Notes under the pieces: model-generated
The model's database searches: none
What the model saw: the letters and a program-made list of their open reading frames with translations, nothing else
What the model was told of the DNA's origin: nothing
Program-made: the position numbers and the translations under genes
Assembly (NCBI GenBank): GCA_016781085.1
Contig: JADDQZ010000062.1
Span: 1-38,255 of the forward strand
Source of the DNA: Actinomycetota bacterium
GTDB lineage: Bacteria; Actinomycetota; Thermoleophilia; Solirubrobacterales; Solirubrobacteraceae
Reading direction: 5' to 3'
Length of the DNA stretch: 38,255 bases
Shown here: positions 19,227 to 26,772 of the stretch, piece by piece
Layout: each line of letters opens with the position of its first letter
Numbering within the stretch: position 1 is the stretch's first letter

Positions 19227-20495
19227 GTGACCGACCAGACTCGAGCGACTAACTTCAAGAACGCCTCCTACCTCGCGGATCCAGAAGACGTCCGACGAGT
19301 CCTGCTCCTGTACTCGGGTGGTCTAGACACAAGCGTGATGCTCAAGTGGATTCAAGACGAGTACAACGCCGAAGTCGTCGCTCTCACGGTTCATCTCGGT
19401 CAGCCGGGCGAGGATTTCGACGAGGTCCGTGAGAAGGCGCTGACGCTGGGCGCGGTCGAGGCGCACGTCGTCGACGCCCGCGAGGAATTCGCCCGTGACT
19501 ACGTAGCGCCGGCGATCAAGGCCAACGCTCTTTACGGCGGTGGCTACCCGCTCTTCACCGCGCTCGGGCGGCCGTTGATCGCCAAGCTCGCCGTCGACTA
19601 CGCACACCGCTCGGGCTGCGACACGATCGCGCACGGTTGCACCGGCAAGGGCAACGACCAGGTTCGAATCGAAGCCACCGTGGCCACGCTCGACCCGGAT
19701 CTGAAGGTGATTGCGCCGGTGCGTGGCTGGCAGATGGGCCGCGAGGAAGAAATCGAGTACGCGCGCCGCAACGGCATCCCGATCAAGGGCGGAACGCAGG
19801 CCGCGCCCTATTCGATCGACGACAACCTGTGGGGCCGCTCGTCTGAAGGCAAGTGGATCGAAGACCTCTCCCACGCTCCCAAAGAAGACGTCTTTCAGCT
19901 GGTTACGCGGCCCGAGGAAGCCCCCGACGAGCCCGAGCGAGTCACGGTAACCTTCGAGCGCGGAGTCCCGGTGGCACTCAATGGCGAGCGGCTGGAACTC
20001 GTCGAGCTGCTTTATCGCGCCGCCGTGATCGGCGCACGCCACGGCGTCGGGATCGTCGACCACATCGAAGACCGCATCGTCGGGCTCAAGGTCCGCGACA
20101 TCTACGAGGTGCCGGCCGCGGCGATCATCCTGCCCGCTCATCAAGAGCTCGAGAAGCTGGTGGGAACCATCCACCAGAACCAGTTCAAGCCCCAACTCGA
20201 TCGCCAGTGGGCTTATCTGGTCTACGCAGGGTTGTGGTACGAGCCGCTGCGCCAAGACCTCGACGCCTACATGCAAGCCGTCAACGCACAGGTCAGCGGC
20301 ACGATCGGCCTCAAGCTCTTCAAGGGCCTGGCTCGCGTGGAGACGCGCGAATCGCGCAACGCCGTCTATGACCAGTCGCTCGCCTCGTTCGGGGAATCGG
20401 GCGGGTTGTTCTCCCAGCAGGCTTCACCTGGGTTCATCGAGTTGTGGTCGTTGCAATCCCGGATGGCTCACCGGGTCCGTGAGGAAAACCCGTGA
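19227..20495 (+). CDS. argG: Argininosuccinate synthase
   Basis: A protein of 422 residues from a GTG. It joins citrulline and aspartate with ATP hydrolysis to AMP. Motifs: the PP-loop LLYSGGLDTSV, YPLFTALGRPLIAK, DTIAHGCTGKGNDQVRIEA, and the tetramerisation-side C-terminus (LKVRDIYEVPAA, KLFKGLARVETRES). The product needs ornithine carbamoyltransferase (argF) upstream and argininosuccinate lyase (argH) downstream in the pathway; neither is in the window. The stop lies inside a possible GTG for the following small gene, but that gene has a better ATG further on. Confidence 0.96.
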   Translation: MTDQTRATNFKNASYLADPEDVRRVLLLYSGGLDTSVMLKWIQDEYNAEVVALTVHLGQPGEDFDEVREKALTLGAVEAHVVDAREEFARDYVAPAIKANALYGGGYPLFTALGRPLIAKLAVDYAHRSGCDTIAHGCTGKGNDQVRIEATVATLDPDLKVIAPVRGWQMGREEEIEYARRNGIPIKGGTQAAPYSIDDNLWGRSSEGKWIEDLSHAPKEDVFQLVTRPEEAPDEPERVTVTFERGVPVALNGERLELVELLYRAAVIGARHGVGIVDHIEDRIVGLKVRDIYEVPAAAIILPAHQELEKLVGTIHQNQFKPQLDRQWAYLVYAGLWYEPLRQDLDAYMQAVNAQVSGTIGLKLFKGLARVETRESRNAVYDQSLASFGESGGLFSQQASPGFIELWSLQSRMAHRVREENP

Positions 20496-20536
20496 GAAGC
20501 CGACGCGAGCGCGCAGGTACGCGAGGAGGAAGCTCG

Positions 20537-20695
20537 ATGCTCTATTCCATGTTGGGAAGAGTCACTTGGAAACTCGTCAAACGGCGCGCGCGCCGGGGCC
20601 GCAAGACGCGCAGTCGCGGTCCGCTGGCAGCGGCGATCGTGGCGGGATCGGTCGGAAGCGCGCTCTTGCGGGGACTGTTCGGCAAGGACTCCTGA
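20537..20695 (+). CDS. Small basic protein with one hydrophobic segment, unknown
   Basis: A protein of 52 residues from an ATG with a strong ribosome site (GGAGGA, 6 nt spacing), unlike its leaderless neighbours. An earlier in-frame GTG at 20492 overlaps the argG stop but has no comparable site. The product reads MLYSMLGRVTWKLVKRRARR, a short very basic stretch, then a hydrophobic Ala/Gly/Val segment (PLAAAIVAGSVGSALLRGLFG) that could be a single short membrane helix or amphipathic anchor. I know no family for it. It is 41 nt after argG and probably cotranscribed with it. A positively charged cytoplasmic face beside a membrane segment would fit a membrane-associated microprotein; that is inference. 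Confidence 0.6.
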   Translation: MLYSMLGRVTWKLVKRRARRGRKTRSRGPLAAAIVAGSVGSALLRGLFGKDS

Positions 20696-20776
20696 TCCGC
20701 GCCCGTTCGCGGTCTGCGCGCACGGAAACGGCCGTGGCCGCTCCGTGCCGCCGGGTGTTGTGGAAGCATCCCGATC

Positions 20777-23173
20777 GTGACCGAGTCTTCTCGCTTTGCG
20801 CGCTTTACTTCGGCGTCGCGCGACGTCACCGTCGTGGAATGGCTGGATTCCGGCTCGGGCGCGGAGATGCTGCGAGTCGAGGGGCCGCGACGGTCGGATG
20901 GCTCTGAGCAACCGCCATTCGCGCTTGTCGTGCGCCGCGACGGCGACGCGCGCCGGCTTGATCCGCTGCCGACCGTCACGGCGGGGCGCGATTGGTGGGG
21001 AGTCGCCTTCCTCCTGGAGCCGCAGGAACTCAAGCTGGCGGACGAGATAGTCCTGCAGTGGTCAAACGGCGACGAGCTGGCCCTGACAGGCGCCGATGTC
21101 GCAGCGATGCGTCAGGACGGCGGTGGCCAGGATGCCGTTTCTGATCGCCGGCCGGCTCAAGTGATTCAGCAAGAGGAGCTCAACAAGCGCCGGGCGCAAC
21201 GGGCCGCCGGTGTTCCGAAGTCGCCGGGGGAGGAAGTCCTCGAGTCCTCGGCGCAAGCCGAGGGTACGGACGCGTCCGGAGAGGAAGTAGTCCCAGACGC
21301 GTCCGGCGAGGAGGTCATCCCAGACGCGTCGTCGCAAGCGAGCTCAAAGCCTGCGGTGCCAGGCGATCAAGCGGCTGATCGCGGGCCTTCGGCGCCATTG
21401 GCAGGCGCCGAAGGCCCGGACTTCGAGCGCGAGTCTGTGGCGGCGGACGCGGAAGCCGAGCTGGCCCTGCTGCGCCAGCGTCTTGAAGGCTTGCTGCAGG
21501 ACAACGACGACCTGCAAGCGGCGCACGGGATGACGCTGGAGCGGTTCAGGTCCACGCTGGGCGAACGTGACGACCTCAATCATGCGCTCAACGTCCAGCG
21601 CCAGCGGCGCAAGGACGCCGAAAAGGCAGCCCGCAAGCGCAAGGGAAAGCTCGTTGCGATCAAGCGGCAGTTGAGCGAGCTCATGCTCAGCGCCAAAGAA
21701 ACGGAGCAGCGCCACGCCGGCGAGCTACAGGATGTGCTTGAAAGACTGCGCGCTGCACTTGACCAGCTATCGGAAGAAAAGCAGGCACGCGCGGAACTCG
21801 AACAGCAGCTGCAGCGGGCGCGCAGGGACCTCGCGCGATTGTCTGCGCGCGCGGCGACAGGCGCCTTTCGGCGGGATCTCGACGACTTTGAAGCCGACAC
21901 GCCACTACCCGACCGTCCCGCCGCAGCGGTGCTGTCTCAGCCGCCGGCGGATCCGCCCGAGCAGTCAGTGATGCGGGCGGCGGACTTTCCGCGCGATGAA
22001 TCGCAACTCCAACTGCCTCGGCCACTCGCTGACTCCGACCTGCTGCGGCGCATAAGCGAACAAGCCAGTATCGCCGCTCGGGGAGTCCAGCCGTCGCGGG
22101 AGAGCCGGATCGCGGCGGACATCGATGCCGCAGCAGAAAACTTGCGAGCGGCGGCCCCGGAACCCACGGCCGAAACGGCATCCCAGACCGCTTCTGAGCA
22201 AGCGAGGACGCCGCAGGAGCGAGTCGGGTTCGTTTCCCGAGCGACAAGCGTCGAGCCGCCCCCCGGCGTGCAAGCGCTTTCCGCGGCTCTGCTGCGCCCG
22301 CTGTCCGTCGGAATACGCGAGGTGGAGCACAAGGCCGCTGAAGTGCAAGCCGTGGCACGGTCGCTGGAGCTCGTCACGGTGCCCGCGGTGGCGAGGTCCT
22401 TGCCGGACCGGCGGGGGGCACGCAATCAAGCCGGGCCGGTGCGGACGCTGGGGCGCATGCGCAGCGCGCTGGTGAGGCTTGCACAAAACGATTCCTTCGC
22501 TGCCGGTCGGTTGATCGCCGCCCTACTACCAGCGCAAGCTGCGTGGGTCGACGACTCCCTGGACTATGACTTGACGATCCGCGAACTTGGCACGTTCGCC
22601 GTGGTGGTCGAGAACGGAAGCGCCACGGTGAGTCGCCTTCAACGCCCGCGCGGCCGCAAGCAGGCAGAGATGCACGTCTCAGCCCCCGCGCTCGCCCTCG
22701 CGGAGCTCTTGGCCGGCCGCTCCAGGCGCGTCGGACGCGTTCTGTCCGCCGTCCGACTGCGCGGGCCCCGGCAGCGCCTGGAGCCTTTGCTGGAGCTCGG
22801 CCGGGCAAAGCCGACGCTGATCGACGTGGCCCGAGCGGGCGCTCACCTGGACCCAGCGCTCGTCCTGAAAGCATTGCCCTATGCGATCGATCCCGAGTGG
22901 ATCGGCGGGCGCCGCTTCTCCATCGCCAGCGAGTTCACCAGTTCCTCGTCGCAGCGCTGGCTGATCCGGGTAGAAGGTGAGCGCGGTCTGCGAGTCGTGA
23001 GCCGGTCCAGCGATGGTGAGCCGGATGCGTCCGTGCGGATGAGCCACGCGGCCTTTGACCGCCTGATGCGCGCTGAACCGCAGATCCCCGGTGACAAGCC
23101 GATGATCCGCGGCGATTACACCGCCGTTGAGCTCCTGCGGACGTGGTGTGAACGCGCTCGTCTGAGCGGCTGA
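20777..23173 (+). CDS. Large coiled-coil protein with two C-terminal SCP2-like domains
   Basis: A protein of 798 residues from a GTG. No family covers the whole of it in my knowledge. Residues 1-110 look like a small beta domain (VVEWLDSGSG, FALVVRRDGD, RDWWGVAFLL). 115-215 is an acidic disordered linker with a 9-residue tandem repeat (DASGEEVVP, DASGEEVIP, DASS). About 220-358 is a long charged coiled coil. 360-560 is low-complexity, Ala/Pro/Glu-rich. About 570-680 (DDSLDYDLTIRELGTFAVVV, APALALAELLAGRS) and 690-795 (WLIRVEGERG, MSHAAFDRLM, MIRGDYTAVELLRTW) each resemble the SCP2 sterol-carrier fold used to hold lipids. There is no signal or membrane helix, so it is probably cytoplasmic. It sits between the argG group and dnaE, with no clue to a partner. 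Confidence 0.7.
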   Translation: MTESSRFARFTSASRDVTVVEWLDSGSGAEMLRVEGPRRSDGSEQPPFALVVRRDGDARRLDPLPTVTAGRDWWGVAFLLEPQELKLADEIVLQWSNGDELALTGADVAAMRQDGGGQDAVSDRRPAQVIQQEELNKRRAQRAAGVPKSPGEEVLESSAQAEGTDASGEEVVPDASGEEVIPDASSQASSKPAVPGDQAADRGPSAPLAGAEGPDFERESVAADAEAELALLRQRLEGLLQDNDDLQAAHGMTLERFRSTLGERDDLNHALNVQRQRRKDAEKAARKRKGKLVAIKRQLSELMLSAKETEQRHAGELQDVLERLRAALDQLSEEKQARAELEQQLQRARRDLARLSARAATGAFRRDLDDFEADTPLPDRPAAAVLSQPPADPPEQSVMRAADFPRDESQLQLPRPLADSDLLRRISEQASIAARGVQPSRESRIAADIDAAAENLRAAAPEPTAETASQTASEQARTPQERVGFVSRATSVEPPPGVQALSAALLRPLSVGIREVEHKAAEVQAVARSLELVTVPAVARSLPDRRGARNQAGPVRTLGRMRSALVRLAQNDSFAAGRLIAALLPAQAAWVDDSLDYDLTIRELGTFAVVVENGSATVSRLQRPRGRKQAEMHVSAPALALAELLAGRSRRVGRVLSAVRLRGPRQRLEPLLELGRAKPTLIDVARAGAHLDPALVLKALPYAIDPEWIGGRRFSIASEFTSSSSQRWLIRVEGERGLRVVSRSSDGEPDASVRMSHAAFDRLMRAEPQIPGDKPMIRGDYTAVELLRTWCERARLSG
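21269..21331 (+). repeat. Tandem 27-bp repeat within coiled-coil protein gene
   Basis: Two full 27-bp units and the start of a third (GACGCGTCC beginning at 21269 and 21296, partial at 21323) encode DASGEEVVP, DASGEEVIP and DASS. Copy number could vary between strains by slippage. Confidence 0.7.
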
Positions 23174-23237
23174 CAGCTCGGAATAGCCGCGCCCGCAACC
23201 AGCGGGAAAAGACACCGAAAACGTCCGGGCGGGCGTC

Positions 23238-23243
23238 TAGGTT
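23238..23243 (+). promoter_or_regulatory. -10 box for leaderless dnaE mRNA
   Basis: TAGGTT followed by exactly 7 nt and the dnaE GTG at 23251, with no Shine-Dalgarno sequence. No -35 is clear. Confidence 0.5.
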
Positions 23244-23250
23244 CTCCCGC

Positions 23251-26200
23251 GTGACTCCACCGGCCTGCGCGCATCTGCACGTCCACTCCGAGTACTCGCT
23301 GCTCGACGGCGCCTGCAACATCGACAAGCTCGCCGCGCGAGCGGCGGAGTTCGGCCAGCCCGCTCTTGGGCTCACCGATCACGGCGTGATGAACGGTTCC
23401 GTGGAGCTTTACAAGGCTTGCCGCAAGCACGGGGTCAAGCCGGTCGTCGGACTTGAGGCCTACTACGTCGATGACCGCAAGATCCGTCAAGGCCGCATCG
23501 AGCGAAATCACCTCACGCTGCTGGCGTCATCCGACCAAGGTCTGCGTAATCTCGTGAAGCTGTCGTCGGCAGGTTTTCTGGAGGGCCTGCACCAGGGCAA
23601 GCCGGGCGTCGACATGGAGATGCTCGACTCCTATTCAGACGGCGTCATCGCGCTCACCGGCTGCCTGGCGTCGCGTTCGAGTGCCCGCATCCTCGAGGGG
23701 CGTGAGAAAGACGCCCGCGCTTACATCGACGATTTGATCGGCGTCTTCGGCGCCGACGATGTCTACCTCGAAGTTCAGCGCAACGGGCTCGAAGAGCAGG
23801 AACGTGTCAACGAGGCGATGGTGCGCTTCGCGAGAGAGCTAAACCGCCCGCTCGTGGCCACGGCCGACGTCCACTACCTCAGGCGCGAGGACTTCCAGCA
23901 TCACGCCGCGCTTTTGTGCGTCCAAACCAAGTCGACACTGGCTCAACCGAAGATGAGCTTCTCGACGAACGAGTTCTACTTGAAGAGCCCGGAAGAAATG
24001 GCGGAGGCTTTCGCCGACATGCCGGGTGCCATTGAGACGACACTCGAGATCGCCGAACGCTGTGACAGCACGATCGAGCTGGGCAAGCAGTTGATTCCTC
24101 GCTACGAGACGCCGAGCGGACAGCCAGAGAAGGAATACCTGAGGACCCTGGTCGAGGACGGCATGAGGCGGCGCTATGGCGACCCGCCGCCCGCCGAAGC
24201 GATCGAGCGCATGGAAATGGAGCTCGGCGTCATCGACAAGATGGGCTTCAACGCCTATTTCCTGATCGTCTGGGATTTCGTCAACTTCGCCAAGCGCAAC
24301 AAAATCGCGGTCGGCCCCGGGCGCGGATCGGCGGCTGGGTCGCTCGTCGCCTACTGCCTCCAGATCACCGATGTCGATCCGTTGCGCTACGACCTGCTGT
24401 TCGAGCGGTTTCTCAACGCCGAGCGTGTGTCCATGCCCGACATCGACATCGATTTCTCGGTGCGCGGGCGCGAGAAGGTCATGCGCTACGTGATCGACAA
24501 GTACGGGACCGATCGCGTCGCGCAGATCATCACCTTCGGTCGGATGTTCCCGCGGGCGGCGACCCGAGACGCCGCCCGCGTCCTCGGCCATGAGTATGCG
24601 GTCGGCGATCGTCTGGCCAAGCTGATCCCGGATCCCCAGCAGGGTCGCGCCCCCTCGTTCAGTGACTGCTTGCAACCGGAAAGCGAGCTTTCCGCCGAAG
24701 TGGCTCGCGATCCCGTCGCCAAGCAGATCATCGATGTCGCCCAGGGACTCGAAGGCATCGTCCGCAACGCGTCAATCCACGCTGCCGCGGTGGTCATCTC
24801 CGACCGTCCCTTGACCGACATCGTCCCGCTGCAGCTCGCCGACGGCGGAACGGACGAGAACGGGGACCGCGTCTACCGCACGGTGACGCAGTTCTCGATG
24901 AAGCCGATCGAGGAGATCGGCTTGCTCAAGATGGACTTCCTCGGCTTGCGCAACCTCGATGTGATCGAGGACACGCTGGACATCATCGAGCGCTCGCGGA
25001 GCGAGCGCATCGACATGGCCACGCTCGCGCTCGACGACACCAAGACCTTCGAGATGCTGGCTCGGGGCGATTCGATCGGCGTCTTTCAGTTTGAGTCCGA
25101 AGGCATGCGTGAGGCGCTCAAGCGGGTGCAGCCGACGGAATTCGAGGACCTCGTGGCGCTCGTGGCGCTCTACCGACCCGGCGCCATGGATCAGATCCCG
25201 ACGTACGCGCGCGGCAAGCGCAATCCGGAAAGCATCGCTTTCATCGACGACCGGCTGCGGTCGATCACCGAGGCGACCAAGGGCGTGATCCTCTACCAAG
25301 AGCAGTCGATGCAGATCGCCAAGACGCTCGCCGGCTTCTCGGGCCCGAAGGCCGACGATCTGCGCAAGGCGATCGGCAAGAAGAATCGCGAAGCGATGGC
25401 CAAGCTCAAGCCGGAGTTCGTCGAGGGTTGTCGCGGGTCTGGAACGAGCGAAACGGTCATCGAACAGCTGTGGGCGACCAACGAGAAAAGCGCCGACTAC
25501 TCCTTCAACCGCTCACATGCGGCCTGCTATGCGCTGATCTCGTACCGGACGGCGTGGCTACGAGCCAATTATCCGGCCGAGTACATGGCGGCGCTGATCT
25601 CTTCGGTGATGGACACCAAGGACAAGGTGCCTTTCTTCGTCAACCAGGCGGAAAGCATGGGCATCGAAATCCTGCCCCCGGATGTGAACTTGTCCGACCA
25701 CGAGTTCATCGTCGTCGAAGGCAACATCCGCTTCGGCCTGGACGCGGTCAAGGGAGTTGGACACGCGGCTGTGGAAGCGATCAAGCGAGCGCGTGAAGAG
25801 GGCGGCCCCTTCACCTCATTGTGGGACTTCTGCGAGCGCGTCGACTGCCGCTCGGTCAACCGCAAGGCGATCGAAGCGCTGATCAAGTGCGGCGCTTTCG
25901 GTTCGACGGGGGCCACTCGCCGCGGCATGCTCGACGTGCTCGAGGCTGCGCAGGGAGCCGGCAACAAAAGCCAGCAAGACGCGCAAATCGGCCAAGGATC
26001 GATTTTCGATCTGGCGGGCTTCGGTGACGCTCCGTCCGCCTTCGCCAAGCCGGCCTATCCACCGATCCCCACGCACGAGTTCGATCGCCAGGAGCTGCTC
26101 GCCATGGAGCGCGAAGCCATCGGCGTCTTTATCTCCGAACATCCGCTCAAGCGCGTGCGTGATGCGCTGCTCGCCAAAGCCGACTGCTGCTGCGCTGAAA

Positions 26201-26772
26201 TCATCAACCGCAAGGACGGCGAGTGGATCAAAGTCGGCGGCATGATCTCTGCTGCCAAGAAGATTCCGACTCGCAATGGCTCCAAAGTCATGTTCGCCAC
26301 GCTCGACGACCTCGACGGAACGGTTGAGATCGTGGCGTTCGAGAAGACGCTCGCCGCCGCCGAAGGTGCGTTGAGCGTCGATGAGATCGTCATGGTCCGC
26401 GGTCGCGTCGATCATCGAGAGGCGGGCAAGGTCTGCGTCGTCCTCCAAGACGTCGAGCGCTTCAATCCGAGCGACGCGGAAATCCAACGCGCGCGCGTGG
26501 ACGCCGCCAAGGCAGCCGAACCGCCTCCTGCGCTGGTGCTGCGCCTTGATGCCGCGCGTCTTCCCGCCGCCGTCATCGACGACTTGAAGCGCTTGTTCGT
26601 CGACTATGCGGGCGAAAGCGATGTCGTGCTCGAGATGCACACCCGCTCCGGGCGCCGCCGGCTGCGTTTGGGGCAGGAATATCGGGTCGCAGCGCGCAAC
26701 GCCGCCTTGAAGGCCGAGCTCGATCGCCTCCTCGGATCGGCAGCTGCTCCTGCGGTCGGCGCTGCCGCCTGA
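23251..26772 (+). CDS. dnaE: DNA polymerase III subunit alpha (DnaE-type)
   Basis: A protein of 1173 residues, the main replicative polymerase. The N-terminal PHP domain (1 to about 280) keeps its metal-site pattern (AHLHVHSEYSLLDG, LTDHGVMNG, TADVHYL), so it may retain exonuclease or proofreading activity, as is known for actinobacterial DnaE1. The palm has VGPGRGSAAGSLVAY and the catalytic Asp cluster MPDIDIDFS (D399, D401), with the third Asp in KMDFLGLRNLD. Fingers and an OB-fold (WIKVGGMISAAKK, VEIVAFEKTL, about 990-1075) follow, and the C-terminus ends in an Ala-rich tail. It has its own leaderless-type promoter. It converges on nfo with only 16 bp between. Size and PHP make DnaE1 more likely than the mutagenic DnaE2. 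Confidence 0.96.
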   Translation: MTPPACAHLHVHSEYSLLDGACNIDKLAARAAEFGQPALGLTDHGVMNGSVELYKACRKHGVKPVVGLEAYYVDDRKIRQGRIERNHLTLLASSDQGLRNLVKLSSAGFLEGLHQGKPGVDMEMLDSYSDGVIALTGCLASRSSARILEGREKDARAYIDDLIGVFGADDVYLEVQRNGLEEQERVNEAMVRFARELNRPLVATADVHYLRREDFQHHAALLCVQTKSTLAQPKMSFSTNEFYLKSPEEMAEAFADMPGAIETTLEIAERCDSTIELGKQLIPRYETPSGQPEKEYLRTLVEDGMRRRYGDPPPAEAIERMEMELGVIDKMGFNAYFLIVWDFVNFAKRNKIAVGPGRGSAAGSLVAYCLQITDVDPLRYDLLFERFLNAERVSMPDIDIDFSVRGREKVMRYVIDKYGTDRVAQIITFGRMFPRAATRDAARVLGHEYAVGDRLAKLIPDPQQGRAPSFSDCLQPESELSAEVARDPVAKQIIDVAQGLEGIVRNASIHAAAVVISDRPLTDIVPLQLADGGTDENGDRVYRTVTQFSMKPIEEIGLLKMDFLGLRNLDVIEDTLDIIERSRSERIDMATLALDDTKTFEMLARGDSIGVFQFESEGMREALKRVQPTEFEDLVALVALYRPGAMDQIPTYARGKRNPESIAFIDDRLRSITEATKGVILYQEQSMQIAKTLAGFSGPKADDLRKAIGKKNREAMAKLKPEFVEGCRGSGTSETVIEQLWATNEKSADYSFNRSHAACYALISYRTAWLRANYPAEYMAALISSVMDTKDKVPFFVNQAESMGIEILPPDVNLSDHEFIVVEGNIRFGLDAVKGVGHAAVEAIKRAREEGGPFTSLWDFCERVDCRSVNRKAIEALIKCGAFGSTGATRRGMLDVLEAAQGAGNKSQQDAQIGQGSIFDLAGFGDAPSAFAKPAYPPIPTHEFDRQELLAMEREAIGVFISEHPLKRVRDALLAKADCCCAEIINRKDGEWIKVGGMISAAKKIPTRNGSKVMFATLDDLDGTVEIVAFEKTLAAAEGALSVDEIVMVRGRVDHREAGKVCVVLQDVERFNPSDAEIQRARVDAAKAAEPPPALVLRLDAARLPAAVIDDLKRLFVDYAGESDVVLEMHTRSGRRRLRLGQEYRVAARNAALKAELDRLLGSAAAPAVGAAA

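What the first reader, a model, noticed from the sequence alone, without database searches (positions are those of the whole stretch)
20777..23173. Coiled-coil protein ending in two SCP2-like lipid-binding domains, beside dnaE
The layout (small N-terminal beta domain, acidic repeat linker, about 140-residue coiled coil, long disordered part, two tandem SCP2-like folds) matches no described protein I know. SCP2 domains usually hold lipids; joining two of them to a long coiled coil suggests a scaffold tying a lipid or membrane surface to another structure. It is the best candidate here for an undescribed function.
Basis: partly seen in the sequence, partly recalled or inferred. Interest (0 to 1): 0.6.

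Follow-up and report, generated by a model that had tools for sequence, protein, structure and literature searches.

The report
Coiled-coil scaffold with tandem SCP2 domains
An uncharacterised Solirubrobacteraceae protein joins an immunoglobulin-like domain and a long coiled coil to two lipid-binding (SCP2) domains; it belongs to a modular family whose other members often end in a membrane helix, so it is probably a scaffold that docks on a membrane or carries a lipid.

Summary
ORF 20777-23173 (+, 798 aa) is a real gene: Ig-like beta domain (residues ~18-104), acidic repeat linker, proline-free coiled coil (~215-360), disordered part, then two SCP2 domains (~559-676 and ~681-796). AlphaFold gives two complete alpha/beta SCP2 units (pLDDT 84, pTM 0.81). 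Foldseek and profile searches hit SCP2, alkylsulfatase SCP2 and UbiJ-SCP2. Domain 1 passes Pfam's SCP2 cut-off in four homologues.

Homologues with the didomain lie between argG and dnaE in 13 genera of the family, mostly after an unannotated ~52-aa membrane ORF (window 20537-20695).

(1) In two sister families the same didomain is fused to an R2-like ligand-binding oxidase. (2) The Ig-like domain also heads giant coiled-coil proteins beside tmk/holB, most of them tail-anchored. (3) Some argG-dnaE versions replace the SCP2 pair with a short basic tail. SCP2 thus occupies the slot of a membrane anchor.

Best explanation: a membrane- or lipid-docking coiled-coil scaffold. Structure and modularity are shown computationally; ligand, partner and localisation are inferred. 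No Pfam/NCBIfam family or paper found covers this architecture. New variant of a known kind.

The parts
20537..20695 (+). unannotated small ORF, 52 aa, cationic with one hydrophobic segment (MLYSMLGRVTWKLVKRRARRGRKTRSRGPLAAAIVAGSVGSALLRGLFGKDS); sits after argG in about 30 related loci
   Evidence: HMM built from 8 members (window included, so its own score is by construction); about 30 loci hit directly after argG; hydrophobicity
20777..23173 (+). the gene: Ig-like domain, coiled coil, tandem SCP2; 798 aa
20828..21088 (+). N-terminal Ig-like beta-sandwich domain (residues 18-104)
   Evidence: AF2; recurs in paralogues
21161..21205 (+). degenerate copy of the family motif VVDxxVLAERRARRAE at the head of the coiled coil (window: VIQQEELNKRRAQRA)
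21267..21346 (+). acidic DASGEEV(V/I)P repeat linker
   Evidence: sequence
21419..21856 (+). coiled coil, residues 215-360
   Evidence: no proline, 3.5-residue periodicity
22119..22166 (+). second short motif (AAENLRAAAPEP; family AAERLRAxAP) before the didomain
   Evidence: direct comparison of translations
22451..22804 (+). SCP2 domain 1 (residues 559-676), ends in a basic strand/helix
   Evidence: AF2; Pfam SCP2 in homologues; charge
22817..23164 (+). SCP2 domain 2 (residues 681-796)
   Evidence: Pfam SCP2 22.5 bits; PDB profile hit 6e-5; AF2 and Foldseek
19227..20495 (+). argG (conserved upstream neighbour)
   Evidence: synteny
23251..26772 (+). dnaE (conserved downstream neighbour)
   Evidence: synteny

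Best explanation
The protein is the lipid-facing member of a Solirubrobacteraceae family of modular scaffolds. It most likely forms an elongated coiled-coil oligomer. The N-terminal Ig-like domain docks onto a protein partner. The C-terminal pair of SCP2 domains docks onto the cytoplasmic membrane and/or holds a hydrophobic ligand (acyl lipid, quinone or similar), doing for this member what a C-terminal transmembrane helix does for its giant coiled-coil paralogues. Shown by computation: the ORF, two SCP2 folds, the Ig-like domain, the coiled coil, synteny, and interchangeable C-terminal modules. Inferred: oligomerisation, membrane docking, ligand, partner. The 52-aa membrane ORF upstream is a candidate partner, on synteny only.
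For: Two SCP2 units in the AF2 model and Foldseek/profile hits. Paralogues with the same Ig-like domain and coiled coil end in a hydrophobic C-terminal helix: 1793, 1981, 2534 and 1713 aa proteins (L186, L187, L189, L191) and a 343-aa one, L183. A protein with the same domain before a transmembrane segment and wall-hydrolase domains occurs in L184. Versions of the argG-dnaE gene lacking SCP2 end in short basic tails, net +4 to +9. The SCP2 pair is fused to an R2-like ligand-binding oxidase in sister families; R2lox binds a fatty acid (PMC6399176) and one is an alkane monooxygenase (PMC10867098). Basic segment at the end of SCP2 domain 1 in all 20 members, net +3 to +10. A conserved small membrane ORF directly upstream.
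Against: No experiment. No ligand cavity was examined. Several giant paralogues were read as stop-to-stop ORFs without curated starts, and two of the long ones (L188, L190) lack a C-terminal hydrophobic helix. The basic tails are only weakly amphipathic (hydrophobic moment 0.05-0.28). The gene is absent from the argG-dnaE interval in several genera, so it is not essential family-wide. The window copy has a degenerate VLAERRARRAE motif.
Confidence: 0.5

Rival explanations
1. UbiJ-like accessory factor: the SCP2 pair carries a hydrophobic biosynthetic intermediate inside a soluble enzyme complex and the coiled coil recruits partner subunits; membrane docking is secondary.
For: UbiJ joins an SCP2 domain to a C-terminal coiled coil that binds UbiK2, and serves the Ubi metabolon (PMC9499169). 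Foldseek hits UbiJ-SCP2. The same didomain fused to an R2lox-type oxidase suggests substrate presentation.
Against: No lipid or quinone biosynthesis gene was recognised among the conserved neighbours. Domain order is reversed relative to UbiJ, and the Ig-like domain and long coiled coil are absent from UbiJ. No NCBIfam match to a ubiquinone factor.
Confidence: 0.25
2. The SCP2 domains are degenerate and serve only protein-protein (or nucleic-acid) contacts; the protein is a cytoplasmic coiled-coil scaffold with no lipid role.
For: Domain 1 is highly diverged in the own family: none of the six own-family copies tested passes the SCP2 cut-off in domain 1, one of them (L026) reaching 17.1 bits. 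The basic segment in domain 1 could bind nucleic acid.
Against: Domain 2 keeps clear SCP2 similarity. The didomain is retained in a lipid-oxidase-like fusion. Several paralogues are membrane-anchored.
Confidence: 0.2
3. The conserved location next to dnaE is only inherited gene order and says nothing about function (this can be true together with any of the above).
For: argG and dnaE stay neighbours when the gene is absent (g18, g25 and g2 genomes).
Against: A second branch of the same family sits beside tmk, and mostly holB, in five genera.
Confidence: 0.75

Closest known systems
UbiJ (SCP2 plus coiled coil, UbiJ-UbiK2 complex)
   Same: SCP2 domain combined with a coiled coil; SCP2 fold matched by Foldseek
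   Different: One SCP2 at the N-terminus and a short C-terminal coiled coil in UbiJ; here two SCP2 at the C-terminus, a long coiled coil and an Ig-like domain (PMC9499169)
SCP2 (PF02036): SCP-2, MFE-2 SCP-2L
   Same: fold and, for domain 2, sequence
   Different: Tandem and fused to a coiled-coil chassis
Alkyl sulfatase C-terminal domain (PF14864, SdsA1 type)
   Same: best Pfam and Foldseek match for the SCP2 region
   Different: No sulfatase domain here
MDMPI C-terminal domain (PF07398)
   Same: weak match to domain 1 (0.004; best homologue 6.5e-7)
   Different: No maleylpyruvate isomerase catalytic domain found
R2-like ligand-binding oxidase (R2lox)
   Same: relatives of this oxidase in sister families carry the same tandem SCP2
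   Different: The window protein has no oxidase domain

Membership tests
SCP2 superfamily (PF02036 fold) | SCP2 sequence profile over curated cut-off | tested here: met
   Domain 2: 22.5 vs 21.3 bits in the didomain fragment, below cut-off in the full protein (18.6); domain 1 over cut-off only in R2lox-fused homologues
SCP2 superfamily (PF02036 fold) | SCP2 alpha/beta fold | tested here: met
   AF2 and Foldseek; predicted, not solved
SCP2 superfamily (PF02036 fold) | binds a lipid or sterol in an internal cavity | not testable with these tools
   needs ligand assay or structure
UbiJ | N-terminal SCP2 followed by short C-terminal coiled coil | tested here: not met
   Order reversed, two SCP2
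UbiJ | profile match to a ubiquinone factor in NCBIfam | tested here: not met
   Only SMC, PqiB and ASRP coiled-coil hits far below cut-off
Alkyl sulfatase | metallo-beta-lactamase-type catalytic domain | tested here: not met
   No such Pfam hit
Mycothiol-dependent maleylpyruvate isomerase | N-terminal catalytic domain | tested here: not met
   No such Pfam hit
SMC proteins | ATPase head and hinge | tested here: not met
   Only coiled-coil match, 12.3 bits vs cut-off 567
Solirubrobacteraceae Ig-like/coiled-coil family (defined here) | Ig-like N-terminal domain followed by coiled coil | tested here: met

The most novel reading that the evidence does not exclude
The Ig-like/coiled-coil family is a lineage-specific cytoskeleton-like system tethering the replisome or chromosome to the cell membrane: one branch (tandem SCP2) encoded next to dnaE, the other (giant, mostly tail-anchored coiled coils) next to tmk and holB.
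Probability: 0.07. Interest if true: 0.85.

Novelty: new variant of a known kind. Interest (0 to 1): 0.48.

Why it matters
If right, it defines an undescribed family of membrane-associated coiled-coil scaffolds in Solirubrobacteraceae, a little-studied actinobacterial lineage, and adds a tandem SCP2 module that is shared between scaffolds and an R2lox-type oxidase. The R2lox fusion gives a testable route to the ligand.

Tried and rejected
Ig-like domain against PDB: no significant match, best E 0.03. SMC, PqiB and Golgin matches were rejected as coiled-coil composition. Literature: nothing on R2lox with SCP2, Solirubrobacter with SCP2, Solirubrobacter coiled-coil scaffolds, or tandem SCP2; only open-licence papers are held. 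Promoter scan found none in 20400-23400, and the only terminator-like hits are on the minus strand and near chance; operon structure is therefore unresolved.

Full report
Observation. ORF 20777-23173 (+) encodes 798 aa between argG (ends 20495) and dnaE (starts 23251). Full-protein Pfam hits for the C-terminus are Alkyl_sulf_C and SCP2, just below cut-off. In the didomain fragment SCP2 rises to 22.5 bits against a cut-off of 21.3, and domain 1 shows a weak MDMPI_C match.

Homologues. A protein search of 61 genomes found 21 with matches. In the same family the gene lies between argG and dnaE. Of 43 oriented loci with both anchors, my count is 21 with the didomain (13 genera; in L040 split by an apparent frameshift), 2 with a single or strongly diverged SCP2 region (L138, L143), 6 with the motif and coiled coil but no SCP2 (L120, L123, L124, L134, L144 and, by eye, L132), and 14 with neither, though L137, L141 and L142 carry another coiled-coil ORF there. 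A profile of 20 didomains (A1) found full-length matches only in the own order when 299 genomes of the class were sampled; matches elsewhere in the class covered single SCP2-like regions, and in the phylum sample the one match outside the class, G476, did too. Named records from the contig scan are Solirubrobacteraceae or Solirubrobacterales (plus one titled only Actinobacteria bacterium), including the complete genome of Paraconexibacter antarcticus. Sampling scored only a limited number of candidates per genome, so absences are soft.

Fold of the C-terminus. AF2 of residues 551-798 with 8 sequences: pLDDT 83.9, pTM 0.81, helices and strands in two repeated a-a-b4-a-(a)-b-a units. Foldseek against PDB: alkylsulfatases 1.7e-6 and up, human SCP-2L TMt 0.67-0.72 at 2.7-3.2 A, UbiJ-SCP2 TMt ~0.5. 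hmmsearch of A1 against PDB sequences: rabbit SCP2 6e-5. Domain 1 alone is above the Pfam SCP2 cut-off in four R2lox-fused homologues. Domain 1 and domain 2 profiles align in register, E 1.9e-4. The tandem SCP2 claim therefore rests on sequence in homologues and on a confident model, not on window domain 1 sequence alone.

Second context of the didomain. In L027, L028, L033, L034 and L038 (sister families f2, f3) the didomain is followed by a ferritin-like domain; in L027, the one tested, NCBIfam matches R2-like ligand-binding oxidase at 4.3e-34, below the equivalog cut-off, and Pfam Ribonuc_red_sm at 34.9 bits, above cut-off. Both ExxH motifs are visible in the translation. In L027, L034 and L038 these genes lie near reading frames that look like cytochrome oxidase subunits and an enoyl-CoA hydratase, by reading of translations only.

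N-terminal half. AF2 of residues 1-148 gives an Ig-like beta-sandwich (pTM 0.58, core pLDDT mostly 76-89) with no significant PDB match. Profiles of this domain find it in other proteins of the same family: giant ORFs with long coiled coils and a C-terminal hydrophobic helix (L186 1793 aa, L187 1981, L189 2534, L191 1713), a 1583-aa one without such a helix (L188), a 3857-aa one ending in a basic tail (L190), a 343-aa tail-anchored one (L183), and, in a sister family, a protein with SLT and M23 domains (L184). The window genome has a second copy at G000:C59. Five giant genes (L186, L187, L189, L190, L191) lie beside tmk, four of them with holB found too.

Upstream small ORF. 20537-20695 encodes 52 aa, cationic with one hydrophobic stretch. 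The HMM was seeded with the window sequence, so its own score is circular; the independent support is its recurrence directly after argG in about 30 loci, including g18 loci that lack the big gene.

Interpretation. Across the family, Ig-like domain and coiled coil form a chassis whose C-terminal slot holds a transmembrane helix, a basic tail, or the SCP2 pair. The simplest reading is that the slot contacts the membrane or its lipids. The fusion of the same SCP2 pair to an R2lox-type oxidase argues that the pair can handle hydrophobic ligands, since R2lox binds a fatty acid (PMC6399176) and a Geobacillus member is an alkane monooxygenase (PMC10867098). Ligand, partner and localisation are not shown. 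The dnaE neighbourhood is weak evidence, because argG and dnaE remain neighbours when the gene is missing.

Noticed in passing
window 20537-20695: Unannotated conserved 52-aa cationic single-hydrophobic-segment ORF between argG and the finding.
   Followed up: partly
L027, L028, L033, L034, L038: Tandem SCP2 fused to an R2-like ligand-binding oxidase domain, in L027, L034 and L038 near apparent cytochrome oxidase genes; no paper found on such a fusion.
   Followed up: partly
L186, L187, L189, L190, L191: Giant (1713-3857 aa) Ig-like plus coiled-coil proteins beside tmk (and mostly holB); four of them have a C-terminal hydrophobic helix.
   Followed up: partly
L184:1403-4135 (-): Ig-like domain, then a transmembrane segment, then SLT transglycosylase and M23 peptidase domains.
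   Followed up: partly
L040: The gene is split in two frames (frameshift or assembly error).
   Followed up: no
G000:C59 (L179, L192): Second Ig-like/coiled-coil gene in the window genome, with a run of N inside.
   Followed up: no
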